A stretch of DNA of 61,896 nucleotides from Candidatus Altimarinota bacterium (GTDB lineage Bacteria > Patescibacteriota > Gracilibacteria > BD1-5 > JAGOOR01): the NCBI GenBank assembly GCA_023268615.1, contig JALQUC010000015.1:1-61896 (forward strand), read 5' to 3'. This document shows, piece by piece, positions 4,826 to 46,980 of the stretch. The position numbers were made by a program, and so were the translations under genes. Below the pieces are notes generated by a model. It searched no databases. It had not been told where the DNA came from and was given only the letters and a program-made list of their open reading frames with translations. Position 1 is the stretch's first letter, and the number at the start of each line of letters is the position of its first letter.

Positions 4826-5782
4826 ATGTTTGATTTTTGAATCCTCGGAATGAACGCGAGGAATCTCCTCTACATCAAAAAATTTAATCACAAAAAATCC
4901 ATCTCTCTCGCGGATAGTAAAATAAAGACAAAGACCTATCTCTCTGCTCGAGGTGTGCCATTTGCTGAGACATTTGCTGTTATAAATTCCAAATCTGAAC
5001 TCCAGGAGTGGAATATGGACAGTCTGCCTCGTCGATTTGTCGTGAAGCCAAACGAGGGGAGCAAGGGGAATGGTATTCTCGTGCTCGAGCGGAGAGGGGA
5101 TGTATTTGTCTCACAGGATCGTGAGTATTCTGAGTGGGATCTCAGAGCGCATATGGTCGACATATTGGACGGAGCGTTTTCTATCTCAGGGGGGTATGAT
5201 ACAGTACTTATTGAGGAGCAGCTTCTCCCAGATGAAGGATTTCGCCACTTTTGTCAGCATGGACTCGCAGATATCCGTGTCATAGTATTTAATCTCGTAC
5301 CCGTGGCAGCCATGGTCCGTATGCCGACCGCTCTGTCTGGTGGTAAAGCCAATCTCGCACAGGGTGGAGCAGGATTTGGTATCGATGTGACGACGGGGGA
5401 AGTGCATTCGTTTTTCCAGCACAAGATCCTGCATCACGATATATTTCCTGAGAAGTATCGATTTCTCCGTGGGAAAAAAATAGGCTACTGGAATGATATC
5501 CTCCTCTACTCCTCACAGATTCAGATATTTGCCAATCTCGGCTACCTCGCCCTCGACTGGGTCATCACACCGACGGGTCCGAAGCTCCTCGAAATCAATG
5601 CTCGTGCAGGCCTCGAAGTACAAAATGTAAACGGTATTGCTCTGCGTTCCAGACTTCGGAAAGTCGAAAATATCCGCATCACTGATCCTGTGAAGGGTGT
5701 GGAGATAGCGCGTTCGCTGTTTCATGAGCATCCACTTTTTCAGATCCAAGAAGACAAAATCCTCTATCAAAAACAAAAGTGA
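4826..5782 (+). CDS. Alpha-L-glutamate ligase-like ATP-grasp protein
   Basis: MFDF[G]ILGMNARNLLYIKKFNHKKSISLADSKIKTKTYLSARGVPFAET...RRFVVKPNEGSKGNGILVLERRG...LEINARAGLEVQNVNG; ATP-grasp pattern; TGA at codon 5. Confidence 0.82.
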
Positions 5783-5800
5783 TGTGTCCGCACGGAGACT

Positions 5801-7159
5801 ATGCGTCATGAAAATATCGACATCATCGTCGACCTCGAGTCTCCCTCGACACGCGGAAGTGCTGACTATCTCGGTGAATCTGGTCCATTTTCTGTCGTCA
5901 CCTACGATGGAGCCCAGATGACATTACCGACGATTTCTATTGATGAGACACTGCCCCCACAGACACTTCTTCTCTCAGGGCAGGATATACCTGATCACTT
6001 CGTGAAGCCTTCTGTCTCACCACAGTACGATGTCGTCTATCGATATACGAAATCCAAGTGGCCTCAGACTATTATCGATATTGATGAGACACTCTACAAG
6101 ATGGCAAAAAAAGTGAATCTGTCGTATTTCCTCAAGCCTACTAATTACTACCAAGAGCTCGATACATTTATTTCTGCTCAGGGACTCTATAATCCTGTTT
6201 TTCAGTATGATTTTCCAGAGAGAGTCGCTTTTGAAAAATTCACACAGGATGCCGCTATCCTCCGTGACACCATCGCGTCTATCGGTTCCGGGTATACTGC
6301 TGTCGCTCAATTATTCTACGAAAAACTCGATGAACTCGAGTACAAATCAGAGCTCCTCAGAGGCTATGCTCGTGAAAATCCTGTTGCTATCCGTGATGCC
6401 AATATCGCTCTCTTTGGTGACATCGATGATACACTCTTTGCTCTCGCAAAGGACAAACTCACGACCCTGAGTGATGTCCAGAAATCACAAAAGAAAGTCC
6501 GAGGCAAACTCCTCACCCCCGATGAAGTCCTCGAGGCCGCGACTGCCTATTGTCAGGAACATCAACTGTCTGATATACCTGTCGCCATTCGTGATAGAAA
6601 TTTCTCGCGTATATCCATCACCTACGGTAAAAATATCCGTATCAATATCTCCAAAAATGCTCGCATCTACGCTCAAGAATTGCCAGCTATCCTCGCTCAT
6701 GAGATAGGGGTCCATCTCCAGCGTCATCTCTCTGGTCAGTCTCTCGGACTCAAAATATTTCAGCACGGGACGGGATACTATATCCGTGATGAGGAAGGTC
6801 TCGCTATCTATGAATCGCTCAAGCATCTGCCAGAGGAATATGAAAAAAATGCCATGTATATCAAGTACTATCTCTCTTATATGGCAAAGACAATGAATTT
6901 CTCAGATCTCGCTCGACTCATCCAGTCACTCTATCCTGAGAAGGCGCAGGAGCAGATTTTTTCTGATACTTGTCGTGTGAAGCGTGGCATCAAGCATACC
7001 CAGAGAACCGGCATACTTGGCTATATGAAAGACTCAATTTACCTGCCAGGATATCTCAATATGAAACAGTGGATTGAGTCGGGAGGCGATCCGTATATGC
7101 TCTTTCAGGCAAAGATAAAAATTACTGATATTCCTCTTATGAAATCCTTCTTTACATAG
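5801..7159 (+). CDS. DUF1704 (QEGLA-motif / MATCAP-like) metallopeptidase family protein
   Basis: LPAILAHEIGVHLQRHLSGQSLGLKIFQHGTGYYIRDEEGLAIYESL: HEIGVH plus EEGLA motif typical of DUF1704; no internal TGA. Confidence 0.8.
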   Translation: MRHENIDIIVDLESPSTRGSADYLGESGPFSVVTYDGAQMTLPTISIDETLPPQTLLLSGQDIPDHFVKPSVSPQYDVVYRYTKSKWPQTIIDIDETLYKMAKKVNLSYFLKPTNYYQELDTFISAQGLYNPVFQYDFPERVAFEKFTQDAAILRDTIASIGSGYTAVAQLFYEKLDELEYKSELLRGYARENPVAIRDANIALFGDIDDTLFALAKDKLTTLSDVQKSQKKVRGKLLTPDEVLEAATAYCQEHQLSDIPVAIRDRNFSRISITYGKNIRINISKNARIYAQELPAILAHEIGVHLQRHLSGQSLGLKIFQHGTGYYIRDEEGLAIYESLKHLPEEYEKNAMYIKYYLSYMAKTMNFSDLARLIQSLYPEKAQEQIFSDTCRVKRGIKHTQRTGILGYMKDSIYLPGYLNMKQWIESGGDPYMLFQAKIKITDIPLMKSFFT

Positions 7160-24336: not shown

Positions 24337-27300
24337 TTAGGATAGTAAATCTACAATTCCTCTTTCTCCATCTAGACAAATAATATCTCCTGTTTTGATG
24401 GCTTGTGTGGCTACCTTCGTACCTATGATGCAAGGTTTTTTGATCTCACGAGCCAGTATAGCCGCATGCGACAGTACACCTCCTTCGTTTGTTATAAAAC
24501 CTCATATATCTTGCATAAAAGGCAGATAGTCTGGTCGTGTGGTACTAGAAATCATTATTTCTCATTTTTTGAGTTTCTTTAGATCTTTATGGGAATTGAT
24601 GATGTGAGCTTTTCCTGTGACTTTTCACGGATAGGCGGTAACCCCGGTGATGCTATTTTTGTGAATAGAGGTCTGCTTGTCTAATTCTTCTAATTTTGAT
24701 ATATCAGTAATATTTTCTTCTCTATTTCTCAGGAATAATAGTGCACTATTTTCTTTTCGTCTCAGTATATCTTTTTTAGATGGCCATTTATTTTTTTCTA
24801 TACCTGTCAATATCTCATCTTCTCTCATATAATAGAGCATTTCCTCTTCCAATAAAGGATATTTTTCTGCTATTTCACTATAAACTTCTCATATTTGATA
24901 AGAACTTCTTTCTCGATGAAAGTTTTTCCAGTCTTTGAAATTTGCATAGAGGCGATAGAGTTTTAAGAGTGATTTTTCGTCTTTGTTCCATTTTATATTT
25001 TTTATTTTTTCTAGTTCCTTTTTTTGTTGTTTATATTTTTTTTCTATATTTTTTAGAATTTGCTTCGCAGATTCCTGTGTTGTCTCCTTTACTTTTTTCT
25101 CTATGTCTTTTTGGCTTTTTCCATGAAACATCACATCATACATTCAATAGCTCCTGTATTTGAGAGCAAGTTTTTCTATTCTTCCTAGTTGTTTTTCTTT
25201 TGCTAGGATAGCCGTTTGAACTACATCATATTCCCACTCATCACTTGGCAACATCTGATCTGGCTGAGAAAGTGTATGAAATATTTCTTTCCAATTTCTT
25301 ATTCACTTCTGTTGGATTATTTCTTGAAACACATCGGAGAGAATCTCCTCTATGTAGGAATAGAGAAGCCAGGTGGAGAGACTGATTTTTCTATTGTGTT
25401 TCATATATTCTCTGAGTGTGTGTGAGGGTTTATTTTTGAGGTGTTTTCTCTCTCCTTTATCTAGAAAACTTATAAATTCTCTGTAATCTTGTGTGATTGT
25501 TTTGTATATTTTTTTGTACCATTCTGCTCTTTCTTCTCCTGTGAGCAAATTGCGTATTTTTTCAAATGCTTTTTTGTGTCAAGGTTCGTCATAAAAAACA
25601 GACACAAGTCAGTCTTTTATTCGGTAGAGTTCATTTTCTATCTTCACATCAAAATATTGAGATAATCTCTCACAGTATCCATAATGGAAGAGATTAATTC
25701 TCTGGTAGGACATTTGTCTATCGTAGGTGAATGCCCAGCTTATATTTTCCTTTCTTTCAAGTATTTTCACTACACCATTCTCCGCGTCCACTTCGACTAG
25801 ATCACCATCATCAATAATACTTGTCACTTGTTTGATGCCAACAACACTTGGTATTCCAAATTCTCGTGAAACCACAGATACATGACCTGTTATACCTCAT
25901 TCCTCAGCAACTATTGCGGCAGCTTTTCTCATTATTGGTACAAAATCAGGAGAAGTATTCATGACGACAAGTATGTCTCCTTCCTCCATTTTACTGAAGT
26001 CTCGTGTACCTAGTATTATTTTTGCCTTACCCACTCATCGTCACTTACAGGCTATTCTTCCAGAGAAACAATTTTGTTTATTATTTGTTGCGAGATATCT
26101 TTTTGAGAATTTCTTTGCCTCTTCGCCTATTACTAATTGTGATTCATTCTGGTGATTACAGATATAGGCGTGATAAGCTATCCTCTTATCTATTTCTTCT
26201 TTATTTATTTTATTTTTTAAGAGAAGGTCATGTATTTCTTCTGGTGTCATATCACGGATAAGTCCCTCATCATATCCCGTCAAATTGCTTATGCTTTTAA
26301 AGAGTCATTCTGCATAATGTTGCACTTTGTTGACTTGAAATTTATAATGATCCTTAAGGTAAACAATGAAACCCGCTATATCAATTACTGATGCTTTCCC
26401 AGGAAATGATTTTTTCAGTTTTATCTTCTTTTCCTGCATCTCTTTTTCTTCTCGGATTATCTTTTTGAGATGGTTTTCCGCTTGAGATTTTGGAAATCAT
26501 AGGAGCATGTCATAATAATCTTTCTTGGCCTTTACTGTTTCCTCGAAGTATCCTAGGCTCGCTGTGTAGTATTGCTTGTATATTTCATCAATTTTTTTCT
26601 CAATTTCAACTGTGATTTTATCTTCAAATTTAGTACGCAATTCTAGAATCAAGACCTCTTCTTGTCGCTGGTATGTTCTTTTTGTCGGGTATGTAGCTAT
26701 GGCAAAATCCTCTTCCGATAGCTTACTCTGATGTAGGGAACGAACTACAGCTCTATCTAGCTGTCTCATAAAAGTCGGCACAATTCATATTTCTTCATAT
26801 ATTTTTATGAAATTCCTATACCCATTCCATGCATCTTGACGGTTTTTGTATTCTTTTTTGAAAGTCCTTTTTGCCTTTTCTACGACTTTATTTATTTCTT
26901 TTTCTCCTTCTTGGAGCATACTATTTTTTGCTAGAACTCGCTCAAGAGTGTAATCAAATTCGCTCTCATCTTGTACAGCGAAATACCAGTTTACTTTATG
27001 ATTTTCGGAAGTAGATATGACTGTTATATCATTCTCCCAGAGAGGATGTGGTATTTTTGCCCGAGTACAAAATATTCTATTTGGGTACAGATAACATGCC
27101 CTTCATCATTCTGAGAGAAATTGTTTACCTTCTAGAGAGTATTTACTTCTTGATAAAATTTTTACCACTCCATTCTCTGCATCTACTTCGACGAGGTCAC
27201 CATCTTTGAGTATTTTTGTTGCGTTTTTTGTGCCGATGATGCAGGGTTTTTTGAGCTCTCGTGCTATGATTGCCGCATGACAGGTTATGCCACCCTCATC

Positions 27301-29394
27301 TGTTACAAAAGCACTTGCACGATGCATAGCTGAGATAAAAGATGGAAATGTCATCTGGGTGACAAGAATATCACCAACATTCACCTTATCAAGTTGACTC
27401 GTATGAGTTACAATCTTTACTTTTCACTGTATTTTACCTCGATATGCTGTAACTCACCGAATAGGGGTACCGTCATCGAGAGTGTTTCAAGAAGGTTCAA
27501 TCAGAATTGGCATTTCTTGAAATATTGATTCTCAATGAAAATATCAGAAACTCACCTTGTCAGAATATTTTTCAGGTACACCGTCAAGAAAACTTGTAGC
27601 CCTGTAATATTTCATTTCTTGAAAGGAGATTCAATACTGGAAACCCATTTGCTCAACAATTGGACGAGCAAGAAAAAAAAGGTAGTAAAAAACATCTGTT
27701 CGTTCCGTGCGAAAGAAGACAAGTTCTTGTATCTGTTCAAAGAGAGCTTTCAAAGGTTCCGGGATAGTAATTTTCTTATTGTTTTGTAAAGGAGAGATAT
27801 GTCGTCTCATTTCATCTATTTCTTGTACAGTATATGGAGCAGAAAAACCATCTCGCACCTTGACCCAACCAGCTTTATCTACAATTTCCTGATTTGTTTT
27901 GCCATCTCGTATCATATCATCGAGCATCATATGAAGATTAGGCTTGATCGGAAAACTCGCATCACCAATAAAAGTATCAATATCAGTTGTAATATATTTA
28001 GGAACTTCTATTTGAAGTTTTTTATTGTAATATGATTCTATACTATGAGTAATCCATATGAAGGTCATGGCGACTGACATTATATTATACACTTCTTCAA
28101 ATTTTTGGTGGAGAGAGGTATTTGAGACAATAAGCTGTTTAATCCTCATTTCGCTCTGATACATAAAGTGAGAAAGTGATAGAGTGAGGTCAAATATTGA
28201 ATGCGACACAAAATACCTTTCCAGATCAGCATCCATACTATCAAAGACCTCTTGACTATAATACCACATACCCTCTTGGAAAAGCATTGCCTCCATTGAG
28301 AGAGATTCAAATCAAGCCCTTTGAATATTGGTTGGCGTGAACGATTGTTCTGAAAAGGATAACATAAATGCCCCCCATAAACGCTCGAGCCAAGGTTCCC
28401 AAGTAAATGTGCGTATCCCCCCGGGAATAGATATTTTCTCATAAAATGAAAAATCTCGTGATAAAGTTGTAATTGGTCTCGCCTGCAGAATGTATATTTT
28501 ACCGTCGGCATAAGCCCACTCTATATCGCAAGGAAACCCGTAGTGATTTTCTATTTTTATAATGAGCTGCGATAGTACTGATAATTCCTTTTTTGTGAGA
28601 ATTGGTTTTTCTTGTACGCGATTTTCTATATCTCTCCATTCGTTTTCTCCATTCGTATTTCTAAATATTCCTTTCTTCTTTTCTGCTATGTGTTCAGAAA
28701 TTATTTCTCAGGATGATTTACTGATTACAAATGAATCTGGAGTTACTTCGCCTGATACAACAGCCTCTCCGAGTCACCATGATCACTCTATGACGATCTC
28801 ATCTGTATTTTCGGTGACAGGATGTACTGAAAATGCGACTCCCGCTGATTCTGCATCGACCATGCTCTGCACCACGACGGCTACTGAGATATGTAAGTCT
28901 CCGAGTCATTTCTCGCTTCGGTAGAAGAGTGCCCGTGGGGTAAAGAGCGACGCCCAGCAGGATTGAATCTTTGTGATTATGTCCGTTTTTGGCACATTCA
29001 GATAGGTGTCCAGTTGTCATGCCCATGCGTGCTCTGCTCAGTCTTCAGCAGTTGCGGAAGAGCGAACAGCGACAAAATCTGTCTTGATTGTTTTGGTGTA
29101 TTTTTGTATTTCTTTTTGAATTTTTTCTGAGATGATTCCTCCGCGTATGAGTTCTTGTATTTCCTCTGATGCATGCTCTATTGAACCGACATTGTTATGG
29201 TCGAGCTTTCCTAGTATTGTCTGTATTTCTGCTCGCAGATTATTGCTGTCTATGAAGTTTTCAAATGTCTCTGCAAGAACGACAAATCCTGGAGGAATTG
29301 CTATGCCTGCTTGAGTCATCTCACCGAGAGAAGCTCACTTTCCACCTGCTTTGCCGGCATCATTTTTGGATATTTTATCAAATGAGAGAATCAT
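24337..29394 (-). CDS. Giant (~1685 aa) PEP synthase-like phosphotransferase: PPDK N-terminal ATP-binding domain plus three PEP-utiliser swivel (phospho-His) domains
   Basis: One frame from ATG 29394 to TAA 24337 with only TGA interruptions: GGK[G][29 protein letters not shown][G]AEHAWA[G][18 protein letters not shown]; swivel 1 [24 protein letters not shown], swivel 2 EE[G][20 protein letters not shown], swivel 3 [24 protein letters not shown]. Confidence 0.85.
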
Positions 29395-42110: not shown

Positions 42111-42185
42111 GCCAATGTAGCTCAGCGGTAGAGCACAGGACTCATAACCCTGTGGTCGGCGGTTCGACTCCACCCATTGGCACCA
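42111..42185 (+). tRNA. tRNA-CAT (elongator Met or Ile2)
   Basis: gccaatg-ta-gctc...ctCATaa...ggcggttcgactccacc cattggc a CCA. Confidence 0.9.
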
Positions 42186-42288: not shown

Positions 42289-42363
42289 CGCGGGGTAGAG
42301 CAGTGGTAGCTCGTCAGGCTCATAATCTGAAGGTCGGTGGTTCGATCCCACCCCCCGCCACCA
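42289..42363 (+). tRNA. Initiator tRNA-fMet (CAT)
   Basis: cgcgggg...ctCATaa...ccccgcc a CCA; unpaired position 1:72 (C.C) typical of bacterial initiators. Confidence 0.9.
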
Positions 42364-42404: not shown

Positions 42405-42437
42405 TTTAATTCGTAAGAAAATACCTAGAATTACTTT

Positions 42438-44738
42438 ATGACTTTTCAAGAACAATTAGATGTTGTCGTTCGAGACTATTGATATTTAAATGAAAAAGCT
42501 TCTTATTACGAAGATTTTCAGGCTTCTTTTGTAGCAAATGTAAGAGAAAATACACCTATCTTGCTTTCTAAAATTACTGAATTAAAAGATCAGATGTGAA
42601 TGTGGTCTTTTGTTGATTTTGTGCAAGAAAAACTTGAATCAAAGGTTATTTCTGATGAGTTTTATTCTGTTATTCGTGACTGGTCTCACAATATTCTTCT
42701 TGACCCAGCAACGGGGAAAGAAGTTAGAACTCATATTATTGATGTATTTTTCTTTATAGAATCAGATAAAAGAGTTATAAAGGAGGCAGTATGAATTATC
42801 TTAAAAAATTACCAGAGGTATGTTATTTTGGAACGATTAACAGTACGCTTAAAGGAAAAAGAACACCTTTTCCCTGAAGAGTTTGTAAAAAGTTTACTTG
42901 AGACGCTCAATGTTGATAGGGAGCGTTTTATAGGCATTACTTGGCTAAAAGAGTTATTTTGACTCCTGGCCAAGTCCGAATACTTATCTTTATTTATTGA
43001 AAAAATACAAAAACCAGAGTATAAAACGGCTTTAGAAGAATTTGTAGATATGTGAGAGACTTCCTCAAATGAGTTTTTCTCTTCTGTTCCAAAAGATTCT
43101 CGAAATATTGTTTTGGACTTTTTACTCAACCTTTTTCAGCCATATTCATCTGATGATATGCGCTCTATACTCTTTGATTCTTTGGTTGGTCATTCAATTT
43201 GAGAGTTTCGAAATCGGGCACTTGAATTTATCGTGGAAAATACTGATTCGTTAGTTGATTTTTTGTGAGAAGTTTTGAGTCATTATATTTGGGATTTATA
43301 TCCCTTTGTATCAAAATATATATCTCCATCAGATGTAGCAAAGCTACCGAAGTATATTGAAATGCAAAAGATTTTTTGGCTCTATGAGGCATCTCTTCAG
43401 CAGACACAGAGAGAAGATCTTCAAATACTTAAAATTGCCTTTTTTGAGCTCCCTGGATTTGAAGAAAAGATGATAGAGATAGAGCAAGCTCGGAAAGAAA
43501 ATGATGAAAAGTTCAAAGAATCCCAGAGACAGAGAGACAAGGAAATAAAAGCTCAAATTGAACATGCATCTACAAATATACCAGAGAACCAGATTAATCC
43601 TGGATTGATAGACCTCTTTGAGCGGTATAAAAATTCTAATGATGTTGACTGAAATCCATATTTTTCTGAGCAAAAGAAGCAAGTTGTAAAACAATTTTTA
43701 GATACATTTTTTTCGTGGAATCTCTTTCCTGTAAATTCTCTTGAAGTCGAAGAAATACAAAACCAAGATGGAAATAAGCAACACAGAGGATGACCTTGGT
43801 ATGCTCATGGCTTTTTCTCCCTAGCTGTTCGTATATCAAAAGAAGATTTTTGATTTGACCCTATACCTCAGATAAAAAAAGAGTCACTTATTAATGCTCT
43901 CCCTCTCTTGTATTCTGATGATTTAGATAAATTCATTTTCCCACACCTCAAGACTATTACTGCTAAACAAGCCAATATAATTTTAAGCTTTTATGATGGA
44001 AGCAGAAAAGATGATTTGATGTATTTCTGGTCTGGTCAGAATTTCTTTCCAATTATTGAAAAATACAAAAAAACTCTCGTCTCTAAAACAGTAATAGATC
44101 ATTTTCGTAGGACCCTTCAGTACTGGATTGAAAACGATAGGCTGTATGAATGGAATCGTTCAGAGGCAGTGCGTAAAATAGGCGAAAAAGATACTGTAAA
44201 TGAGGAAATTCTTAATTATCTTGCTGATTTATTCGAAAGAGAAAAGCATATTTTGCCAGAAAATGTTTTGGCAAATTTTTCTCGGGAATTATCATACCTT
44301 ATTGCTGTCAATCAGGTGCTCATAGAGCACGGTGACAATAAAGCTATTCGGTGGCGTATAAATCAGATAAAAGATGCCAAGATTGCTATGCGTGATCCGT
44401 GGGCTAATTTTAGCTGAAAATATGCTCGTTCTATAGGAGATTTGGAGGATGAGCTCACGCACTCAGAGAGATCTTTTATTAACGCCTTAAAGAATATAAA
44501 TCTAGAAAAATATAAGACAGAAATAATCGAATTAGTTGATGTAGTTTTTATGCTTATTGATAAAGATGAAGAGCTTTATTCGATATTTTGAAGATATGTT
44601 TTGGCATGAATTAAGAATATTATTGAAAATAGTTCTCACAATAAAGAAATATTAGAAACTTTAAAAAAATTGATGAGTCATTATCCAGACAAAGTAAAAC
44701 ATGTAGGGAGCTATTATTTATTTAATACAAATAGATAG
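42438..44738 (+). CDS. Large alpha-helical protein of unknown function (~766 aa), first gene of TOPRIM cassette
   Basis: Single frame from ATG 42438 to TAG 44738 interrupted only by TGAs (e.g. EEFVDM[G]ETSS, QHRG[G]PWYAHGFFSLAVRISKEDF[G]FDPI); HEAT-like helical composition; no Walker A seen. Confidence 0.75.
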
Positions 44739-44739
44739 T

Positions 44740-45594
44740 ATGCACTCTAAAAAACTAATGCCAAAAAGAAAAATTGTTTCTCCAGATTCTTCTTGAGCAT
44801 CTGAAATTAAAGAGCTCAAAGAGAAACTTAACTTAGCACAAGAAGAAATAAAGAGATTAGAAAAATATAAAAAATATAGATGTATACTTTGCGTTGAAGG
44901 AAAAAATGACCTTAGACATATTTCTGAAGCTTGGAATTCTTTGAGACCAGGTCAAGATATGCCATTTTTTATTAAAGAGTGAAGAAGGGAATGAGGTGGA
45001 GCGAAGCAGGTTTATGAGAATGTTGTTGAATATAGTGATATAAATGATCCGTGTATTGCATTGTTTGACTTCGACCCAGAGTGATTTGAGCAATTTAATC
45101 ATCTAGTGACAACTTGGTCAAAAAAAGAAAAGATTGATTTGCTCAGAGATTATATGGAGATAGAAGGAGTATCATATCAACTTTTTTGGATTAGAAGTGG
45201 AAATAGGTATGCTTTTCTCTTGCCAGTTTTTCCGGAAATTAAGAGTCAAGTTATTAATGACTTAACTGACCCTAATAATCCTAGTGGTTTTGTTTGAGAA
45301 GAGTCTTTAGCTCCGTCAGTTGTGAGCAATGATTTAAAAAAAATTTCATTTGATGGTCGTCCTCAATTTATGATGGAGCATATGTATTTTGGTATTTCAG
45401 ATGTAATAAATTGATTTTATAAAGAAGTTAAAATATATAACTGAGGAACCTACTTTGGCCTTCCAGAGGGTAAATCAACTTTTTTATCAAAAATAATGGA
45501 AGTATTAGGTGAAGATCCGCAAGACAGAAAACGCTTGTTTAGAAATTTTGAACCGTTATTTCAAAAAATAGAAGAGATATTATCTTTATCTTAA
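44740..45594 (+). CDS. TOPRIM-domain protein (OLD-like), second gene of cassette
   Basis: RCILCVEGKNDLRHISEAW...CIALFDFDPE[G]FEQF: E...D and DxDxxG TOPRIM motifs; starts 1 nt after the preceding stop. Confidence 0.72.
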
Positions 45595-45639
45595 AAATTC
45601 TAATATATTTCTCTTCTATTTGTTGTTTTTTTGGTTTGA

Positions 45640-46980
45640 CTATAACCCTCTAAAATAATCGAGTATCCATGTTCCACCGCCTGGTGATTGCCATCCACCG
45701 CCTGTCGGCCAACTGTGTGGATCTCCGCCGTAGCCTGTGTATCATTCGCACCAGACGACTTCATTGCCAGATGAACAACTATTGTACTTCGTACAGGTGA
45801 GAGGCCCTATTTGGATACTTTCTGTCGACGATTCGCTACATTCATTGACCTTGAGACGGATATTTCTCGCCTGGACTCCAGAGGCGTAGGAGGAGAGATG
45901 GTCATCGACATTTTGGAAGAATATACTCGGTGCTGGTCCAGAGCATGCACCTGTAAATGGTCCAGAACCGACGACTGCGAGTCCACTCATGAATTCACCT
46001 CGCAGACAGGCGATTCTCTGTGCCATCCAACCACCGAGGGAGTGTCCTATGGCGTAGACCTTGTCTCGGTTGATACAATAATTCTCTGATACTTGCTTGA
46101 GGATTGCGTCGACGAATGTCATATTTTCCTTTTCACTCCATGAGAACGATCGACCGCTACTGCTCGCGAGTCCAGCAGGGTAGGCGACGATAAAATCACT
46201 CTGTTTTTCGAGCTTCATATAGTCCTGTACTTGATCTTTGCTATTCGTACGACCGTGTGTCGCGATAGCAAAAGAATATTCCTTATCTTTCGAATAATTT
46301 GACGGGATATAGAGATTATATTTTCTCTCTTTTCATTCTATGGTGATAGTATTTTCTCCCGAGAGTATTCCTCATGCTTGGCATCCTGCACTTTTATACG
46401 AGAGGGGAGACTTTGTCCGTGAATATTCTTGTAATCGTATGATGAGGTCGGCTGATTTTCCACGAGATATCTGTGTCCCGAGAGTGTAGCCGCGTGTAGT
46501 CATGATGTTATTGGTCTCAGCGAATTGCTGGAGAGCCTCATACCATTTTTCTCCTGTTGTTGCTATACCGAGAGCAAATGCTTTATTCCCAAATGCGAGT
46601 GCTTCGAGAGTCGTCACCGAATCGTTGGGTTTGAAATTCCCATCTGCAAATCCGTTGGCTATACCGAGTGTATGAGCTGTACAGATGTATCGGTGGTACC
46701 ACATTGCTGTATCGACATCAGGGAAACATTTTTCAGCGACTGTTTCCGGGATTGGCGTATTGCTGGCTCGGAGCAGTATCGTGAGGAGCTCTGCTCTGGT
46801 AATATTATTCTCTGTTCCATATCGTCCATCACCATATCAGTTTGTGAGTCATTGTGTTTGGAGATTGAGGATTGCATCTTTGTACCACGAGTATTCTATA
46901 TCGGTGAAATCAGCAAAAACTGCGTTAAAAGCAAAGAGCAAAGAGCAAAGAGCAAAGAGAAGGATTTTTGTAGATTTCAT
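45640..46980 (-). CDS. Secreted SLH-like protein with PHB-depolymerase/LpqC-type esterase domain
   Basis: Signal peptide MKSTKILLFALCSLLFAFNAVFA; SLH units (YGDGRYGTENNITRAELLTILLRAS, GIANGFADGNFKPNDSVTTLEALAF); DKVYAIGHSLGGWMAQRIAC (GxSxGG). Confidence 0.82.

What the first reader, a model, noticed from the sequence alone, without database searches (positions are those of the whole stretch)
42438..45594. Candidate unclassified defence/island cassette beside two Met tRNAs: giant helical protein + TOPRIM protein
Two coupled genes (1-nt gap, TAGtATG) start just downstream of the tRNA-Met/tRNA-fMet pair and their terminator. They use AT-rich codons (TTA, AAA, ATA), unlike the CTC/ATC-rich flanking genes. 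The second has TOPRIM motifs (CVEGKND, LFDFDPE[G]) like OLD/DUF4435-type nucleases; the first (~766 aa) looks like an alpha-solenoid with no ATPase motif, so it is not an obvious Gabija, PARIS or OLD ABC-ATPase pair. tRNA-adjacent, compositionally distinct and TOPRIM-bearing is the profile of an anti-phage or island module.
Basis: partly seen in the sequence, partly recalled or inferred. Interest (0 to 1): 0.72.

Follow-up and report, generated by a model that had tools for sequence, protein, structure and literature searches.

The report
HEAT-solenoid plus TOPRIM nuclease defence pair

Summary
Window 42438-44738 (766 aa) and 44740-45594 (284 aa), read with TGA=Gly, are one-nucleotide-spaced genes just after two Met tRNAs, with the lowest GC3 of the window's long ORFs. 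Searches gave three new points. (1) In seven relatives the two are one 1015-1116-aa protein with the same layout, so the window carries a split version. (2) The TOPRIM profile matches the retron Ec67/Eco2 effector over its full length (E=5e-7), with E53, D57, D110, D112 and E213 aligned to Eco2 residues needed for defence; the same TOPRIM also sits on an OLD-type ABC ATPase in a relative. (3) The helical protein is a HEAT-type solenoid whose C-terminal half occurs in other Patescibacteria on a NACHT-like NTPase with a nuclease-like end and on a TIR domain: sensor-with-exchangeable-effector logic. The family is patchy (7 of 78 genomes of the order) and is replaced by another gene at the same site in a congener; several relatives sit beside defence or recombinase genes. 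Best reading: an ATPase-free HEAT-sensor/TOPRIM-nuclease anti-phage system, working like DSR2 with an Eco2-type effector. It is not a member of OLD, Gabija, PARIS or retrons. Function is untested; trigger and substrate are inferred.

The parts
42438..44738 (+). ORF1, 766 aa HEAT-type alpha-solenoid (putative sensor), no Walker A
   Evidence: Table-25 ORF; AF2 mean pLDDT 78.5, almost all helix; Foldseek to CAND1/karyopherin/PP2A-A HEAT proteins, best E 2.6e-5 with low TM; homologous to N-terminal ~730 aa of fused relatives
43752..44696 (+). Conserved C-terminal half of the solenoid (about residues 439-753), the module shared with NACHT- and TIR-bearing proteins
   Evidence: BLASTP 3e-9 to L037, hhalign 98.3%, E 1.1e-14, hmmsearch to L037/L039/L038 2.6e-36/6.4e-24/7.4e-16 against 0.012 for the best of 120 shuffled controls
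43452..43578 (+). Long charged helix within ORF1 (about residues 339-380)
   Evidence: DSSP helix H341-379 in the model
44739..44739 (+). Single base between ORF1 stop TAG and ORF2 ATG; position of the inter-domain linker of the fused relatives
   Evidence: the ORF2 frame upstream is closed, so no coding homology runs through the gap
44740..45594 (+). ORF2, 284 aa: N-terminal coiled-coil-like helix (17-45) plus TOPRIM nuclease domain
44896..44910 (+). TOPRIM motif I E-G-K-N-D (E53...D57)
   Evidence: E and G invariant in 10 homologues, D in 9 of 10; equals Eco2 E374/D378
45067..45075 (+). TOPRIM DxD motif (D110, D112)
   Evidence: Invariant in 10 homologues; equals Eco2 D460/D462
45376..45378 (+). 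Third acidic residue E213
   Evidence: Invariant; equals Eco2 E515
45472..45474 (+). Invariant lysine K245 (candidate catalytic lysine)
   Evidence: Invariant; aligns with Eco2 K546
42111..42185 (+). tRNA-Met (CAT)
   Evidence: ARAGORN
42289..42363 (+). tRNA-Met (CAT), immediately upstream of the cassette
   Evidence: ARAGORN
42406..45640 (.). Variable segment: cassette here, about 1.04 kb with an unrelated 334-aa ORF at the same site in same-genus genome G001
   Evidence: blastn of flanks, about 77-90% identical on both sides

Best explanation
An intracellular immune sensor/effector pair. ORF1 is a HEAT-type solenoid that senses an invader component (inferred) and, at rest, holds the ORF2 TOPRIM nuclease inactive (inferred). 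On sensing, the TOPRIM enzyme cuts nucleic acid, most likely host or phage RNA including tRNA as its Eco2 and PARIS relatives do, so that the infected cell stops growing and the phage is not propagated. No ATPase is present in cis, unlike OLD, Gabija, PARIS and NACHT systems. Shown here: the domain make-up, catalytic residues, fusion of the two parts in relatives, reuse of the solenoid with other effectors, and patchy mobile-type distribution. Inferred: defence function, trigger, autoinhibition and substrate.
For: Seven relatives encode ORF1+ORF2 as one 1015-1116-aa protein, strong evidence that the two work together. TOPRIM profile to retron Ec67/Eco2 at E=5.2e-7 over the domain; E374, D378, D460, D462 and E515, which that paper reports as needed for defence, align with window E53, D57, D110, D112 and E213 (PMC12405507). 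The same TOPRIM (family hmmsearch 3.3e-47, TOPRIM identity 27%) is fused to an AAA_15 ABC ATPase in L028, and an E=4e-28 relative sits on another N-terminus in L029. The solenoid C-half is shared with L037 (Walker A GEPGVGKT, C-terminal EVK-type nuclease-like motif), L038 (TIR, Pfam 6e-7) and L039. Patchy: 7 of 78 genomes of the order, 7 genera; no match in same-genus G001, whose equivalent site holds another gene. Neighbours of relatives: GmrSD_N (L010), KAP NTPase/PifA-like (L025), Dam methylase and IrrE-type peptidase (L027), integrases (L028, L029), serine recombinase (L037). Mechanistic precedent for effector plus HEAT solenoid: DSR2 (PMC11263360).
Against: No experiment. Neither window protein reaches any Pfam, NCBIfam or PHROG family, and PADLOC matches are weak (mad4 0.021, GajB 0.045). 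Foldseek of the TOPRIM model finds nothing at E<=0.001. Several relatives (L009, L011, L012, L026) and the window itself have ordinary or uninformative neighbours. L009 lacks the D57 equivalent. TOPRIM nucleases also cut DNA (Gabija, Wadjet), so the RNA substrate is only favoured. An OLD-family enzyme (Cran1) turned out to act in the cell cycle rather than in defence (PMC12796447).
Confidence: 0.7

Rival explanations
1. An OLD/PARIS-like system: the TOPRIM subunit needs an ABC ATPase encoded elsewhere in the genome, and ORF1 is only a scaffold.
For: The same TOPRIM is fused to an AAA_15 ABC ATPase in L028; PARIS also exists as split and fused forms (PMC12409363).
Against: None of eight solenoid-TOPRIM members carries a Walker A, no ABC ATPase gene is consistently adjacent, and the partner fused or paired in all eight is the solenoid.
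Confidence: 0.1
2. A housekeeping RNA or DNA processing factor (RNase M5- or RecR-like use of TOPRIM).
For: Adjacent to tRNA genes in the window and in L011; TOPRIM enzymes include RNase M5.
Against: Present in only 7 of 78 genomes of its order and absent from a congener at the same site, with lowest GC3; solenoid shared with NACHT and TIR proteins.
Confidence: 0.05
3. A decaying gene: the split results from a frameshift (real or assembly error) in a once fused protein, so the window copy is inactive or in truth still fused.
For: All seven relatives are fused; the break lies in the variable linker and changes frame by one.
Against: ORF2 has its own ATG directly after the ORF1 stop, both halves keep the conserved residues, no other disruption is seen, and PARIS shows that split and fused forms can both occur.
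Confidence: 0.2
4. A toxin-antitoxin-type addiction module with ORF1 as the inhibitor of an ORF2 toxin, kept for maintenance of mobile DNA rather than for phage defence.
For: Two coupled genes, putative nuclease second, mobile-type distribution.
Against: Antitoxins are normally small, while ORF1 is 766 aa and is fused to the nuclease in relatives.
Confidence: 0.1

Closest known systems
Retron Ec67/Eco2 RT-TOPRIM (type I-C retron effector)
   Same: TOPRIM domain homologous over its whole length (E 5.2e-7) with aligned metal-binding residues; effector sits C-terminal to a larger regulatory part
   Different: No reverse transcriptase domain in either protein; regulator is a HEAT-type solenoid; Eco2 S513 is M211 here
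OLD family nucleases (class 1-4; Gabija GajA, PARIS AriA/AriB)
   Same: TOPRIM nuclease effector; one relative (L028) has this same TOPRIM on an ABC ATPase
   Different: No ABC ATPase; HEAT-type solenoid partner; no GajB-type helicase next door
DSR2 (SIR2-HEAT anti-phage protein)
   Same: Works-like: enzymatic effector plus a HEAT-containing helical region that contacts a phage protein directly, no STAND ATPase
   Different: Effector is TOPRIM, C-terminal and here on a separate chain; no homology to DSR2 was shown
Bacterial NACHT/STAND proteins (bNACHT, Avs)
   Same: Solenoid C-half is homologous to that of the L037 protein, which has a NACHT-like NTPase and a nuclease-like end; effectors vary
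   Different: NTPase module absent from the whole solenoid-TOPRIM family

Membership tests
OLD family | C-terminal TOPRIM nuclease with E, DxD and E/K residues | tested here: met
OLD family | N-terminal ABC ATPase (Walker A) | tested here: not met
   No Walker A in ORF1, ORF2 or seven fused relatives; no Pfam ATPase
PARIS | AriA ABC ATPase partner | tested here: not met
Gabija | GajA ATPase-TOPRIM with adjacent GajB helicase | tested here: not met
   No ATPase; the downstream gene is an SLH/esterase protein
Retron type I-C (Eco2) | Reverse transcriptase fused to TOPRIM, with ncRNA | tested here: not met
   No RT in ORF1 or ORF2 by Pfam/PADLOC; the ncRNA was not searched for
Retron type I-C (Eco2) | Eco2-type TOPRIM effector | tested here: met
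   full-domain profile match 5.2e-7
STAND/NACHT (Avs, bNACHT) | P-loop NTPase module | tested here: not met
STAND/NACHT (Avs, bNACHT) | Homologous C-terminal helical-repeat region | tested here: met
   Homology to L037
DSR2-like | SIR2 effector domain | tested here: not met
   No Pfam hit in ORF1 or ORF2
DSR2-like | HEAT-type helical sensor fused or coupled to an enzyme | tested here: met
   and fusion in relatives; architecture only, the sensor role is inferred
Any defence system | Protection from phage, dependent on the active site | not testable with these tools
   Needs an experiment

The most novel reading that the evidence does not exclude
A distinct class of NTPase-free, NLR-like immune receptors largely confined to Patescibacteria, in which one solenoid sensor module is recombined among TOPRIM RNase, TIR and nuclease effectors, with this window showing an evolutionary split of sensor and effector into two chains that assemble on infection.
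Probability: 0.35. Interest if true: 0.75.

Novelty: new variant of a known kind. Interest (0 to 1): 0.6.

Why it matters
Patescibacteria rarely carry CRISPR and how they resist phage is poorly known; recoding (TGA=Gly) hides their genes from standard annotation. This gives a defined, fused single-gene family (L011, L012, L025) that can be synthesised recoded and tested. It links NACHT-type receptors to ATPase-free receptors through a shared sensor module, and the Eco2 TOPRIM effector to a new regulator, so the question of whether the NTPase is dispensable in such receptors becomes directly testable.

Tried and rejected
Pfam, NCBIfam and PHROGs on ORF1/ORF2: none. Genome contigs and viral contigs pattern scans, plasmid and phage tblastn with family members: no relatives; only the NACHT-type L037 protein has plasmid relatives, in Arcobacter. 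att repeats: the tRNA 3' end occurs once in the window and once in its genome, and the direct repeats found are short and imperfect, so a tRNA-targeted integrative element is not supported in this genome. Foldseek of the TOPRIM model: not significant; AriB only at rank 19 with E 0.28, topoisomerase II and VI at ranks 6 and 10. PDB profile search with the whole-length alignments gave no convincing hit; only the TOPRIM-only alignment worked. The family HMM gave no usable match to the Arcobacter NACHT protein. TOPRIM tree: unresolved, long branches.

Full report
Observation. The two ORFs exist as described and are open only with TGA read as glycine. They follow two tRNA-Met genes and a terminator-like hairpin, are separated by one base, and have the lowest third-position GC of the long ORFs in the window. 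TGA as Gly is supported by alignment: window TGA codons fall in Gly-rich columns of the TOPRIM alignment.

What the parts are. ORF1 has no Walker A, is predicted as an almost purely helical solenoid (AF2 mean pLDDT 78.5, pTM 0.50) and is closest by Foldseek to HEAT proteins such as CAND1, karyopherins and PP2A-A (E 2.6e-5); TM-scores are low, so this is a fold-class statement, not kinship. ORF2 has a coiled-coil-like helix followed by a TOPRIM domain (pLDDT 74.7). Foldseek was not significant, but a ten-member TOPRIM profile matches the retron Ec67/Eco2 effector across the domain at 5.2e-7. The Eco2 paper (PMC12405507) lists E374, D460, D462, D378, S513, E515 and a lysine as metal-binding or catalytic, reports that alanine substitutions abolish defence, and shows RNase activity that is toxic unless restrained. 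Window E53, D57, D110, D112 and E213 align with the acidic ones; S513 is M211 here; invariant K245 aligns with K546 in our alignment, while the paper names K562, a discrepancy I could not resolve.

Fusion. In seven relatives (L009, L010, L011, L012, L025, L026, L027) one ORF of 1015-1116 aa contains both parts in the same order. The window is the only split case among the eight. The break lies in the variable linker, the upstream frame of ORF2 is closed, and ORF2 has an ATG right after the ORF1 stop. A frameshift or assembly error cannot be excluded without reads. The solenoid tree joins window and L009 with full support; the TOPRIM tree is unresolved.

Modularity. The same TOPRIM occurs on an OLD-type ABC ATPase (L028) and on another N-terminus (L029). 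The C-terminal half of the solenoid occurs in L037, which has a NACHT-like NTPase at the N-terminus (Walker A GEPGVGKT; Pfam NACHT only 0.0064, below cut-off) and a nuclease-like C-terminus (LEVKLGS motif, read by eye), in L038 with a TIR domain (Pfam 6.1e-7) and in L039. A family HMM gives 2.6e-36, 7.4e-16 and 6.4e-24 for these, against 0.012 for the best of 120 shuffled controls. Effector exchange on a common helical-repeat part is the pattern described for STAND anti-phage proteins (PMC9122126).

Distribution and context. The family is in 7 of 78 genomes of the order and rarely beyond it. In same-genus G001 the flanks on both sides are conserved at about 77-90% identity, but the cassette is replaced by an unrelated 334-aa ORF. 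Relatives lie beside GmrSD_N (L010), a KAP NTPase with PifA-like PADLOC match (L025), a Dam methylase, a large uncharacterised ORF and an IrrE-type peptidase (L027), tyrosine recombinases (L028, L029) and a serine recombinase (L037). L009, L011, L012, L026 and the window have ordinary or uninformative neighbours.

Mechanism. Sensor solenoid plus restrained nuclease, activated by an invader component, is the best-supported model. DSR2 is the works-like precedent for a HEAT-containing region that binds a phage protein and controls an enzyme without an ATPase (PMC11263360), Eco2 for the effector, and PARIS AriB for tRNA cleavage by TOPRIM (PMC12409363). The trigger, autoinhibition and substrate are inference.

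Novelty. It fails the defining ATPase test for OLD, Gabija, PARIS and STAND, and the RT test for retrons. Full-text searches of the open library found no description of this combination, but most subscription papers are not held, so prior description is possible. I rate it a new variant of a known kind.

Noticed in passing
L043:5179-5202 and 5320-5343 (same-genus genome G001): The 3' end of the tRNA-Met beside the variable site is duplicated exactly (24 bases) 141 bp apart, a possible trace of tRNA-targeted integration in the congener; the window has a single copy.
   Followed up: partly
L043:4101-5105 (+): The gene occupying the equivalent site in the congener is an unknown 334-aa ORF with a Walker-A-like GVGKNT stretch and no Pfam match.
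   Followed up: partly
window 24337-29394 (-): 1685-aa PEP synthase-like ORF with the PPDK N-domain and three separate matches to the PEP-utilising mobile domain, about twice the usual size as I recall it; 30 TGA codons and low GC.
   Followed up: no
window 4826-7159 (+): Fusion of an ATPgrasp_ST domain with a MATCAP (tyrosine carboxypeptidase-like) domain, next to a 7TM_transglut protein; the start of a similar ORF is seen at the edge of L025.
   Followed up: no
L037:4157-8239: NACHT-like protein with a C-terminal nuclease-like domain, GC 0.44 beside genes of about 0.30, next to a serine recombinase; relatives on Arcobacter plasmids near a dGTPase and an AAA_13 ATPase.
   Followed up: partly
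L040:5332-6618 (-): 428-aa TOPRIM protein with weak RT-Toprim and AriAB matches, a few kilobases from a serine recombinase, in another Patescibacteria genome.
   Followed up: no
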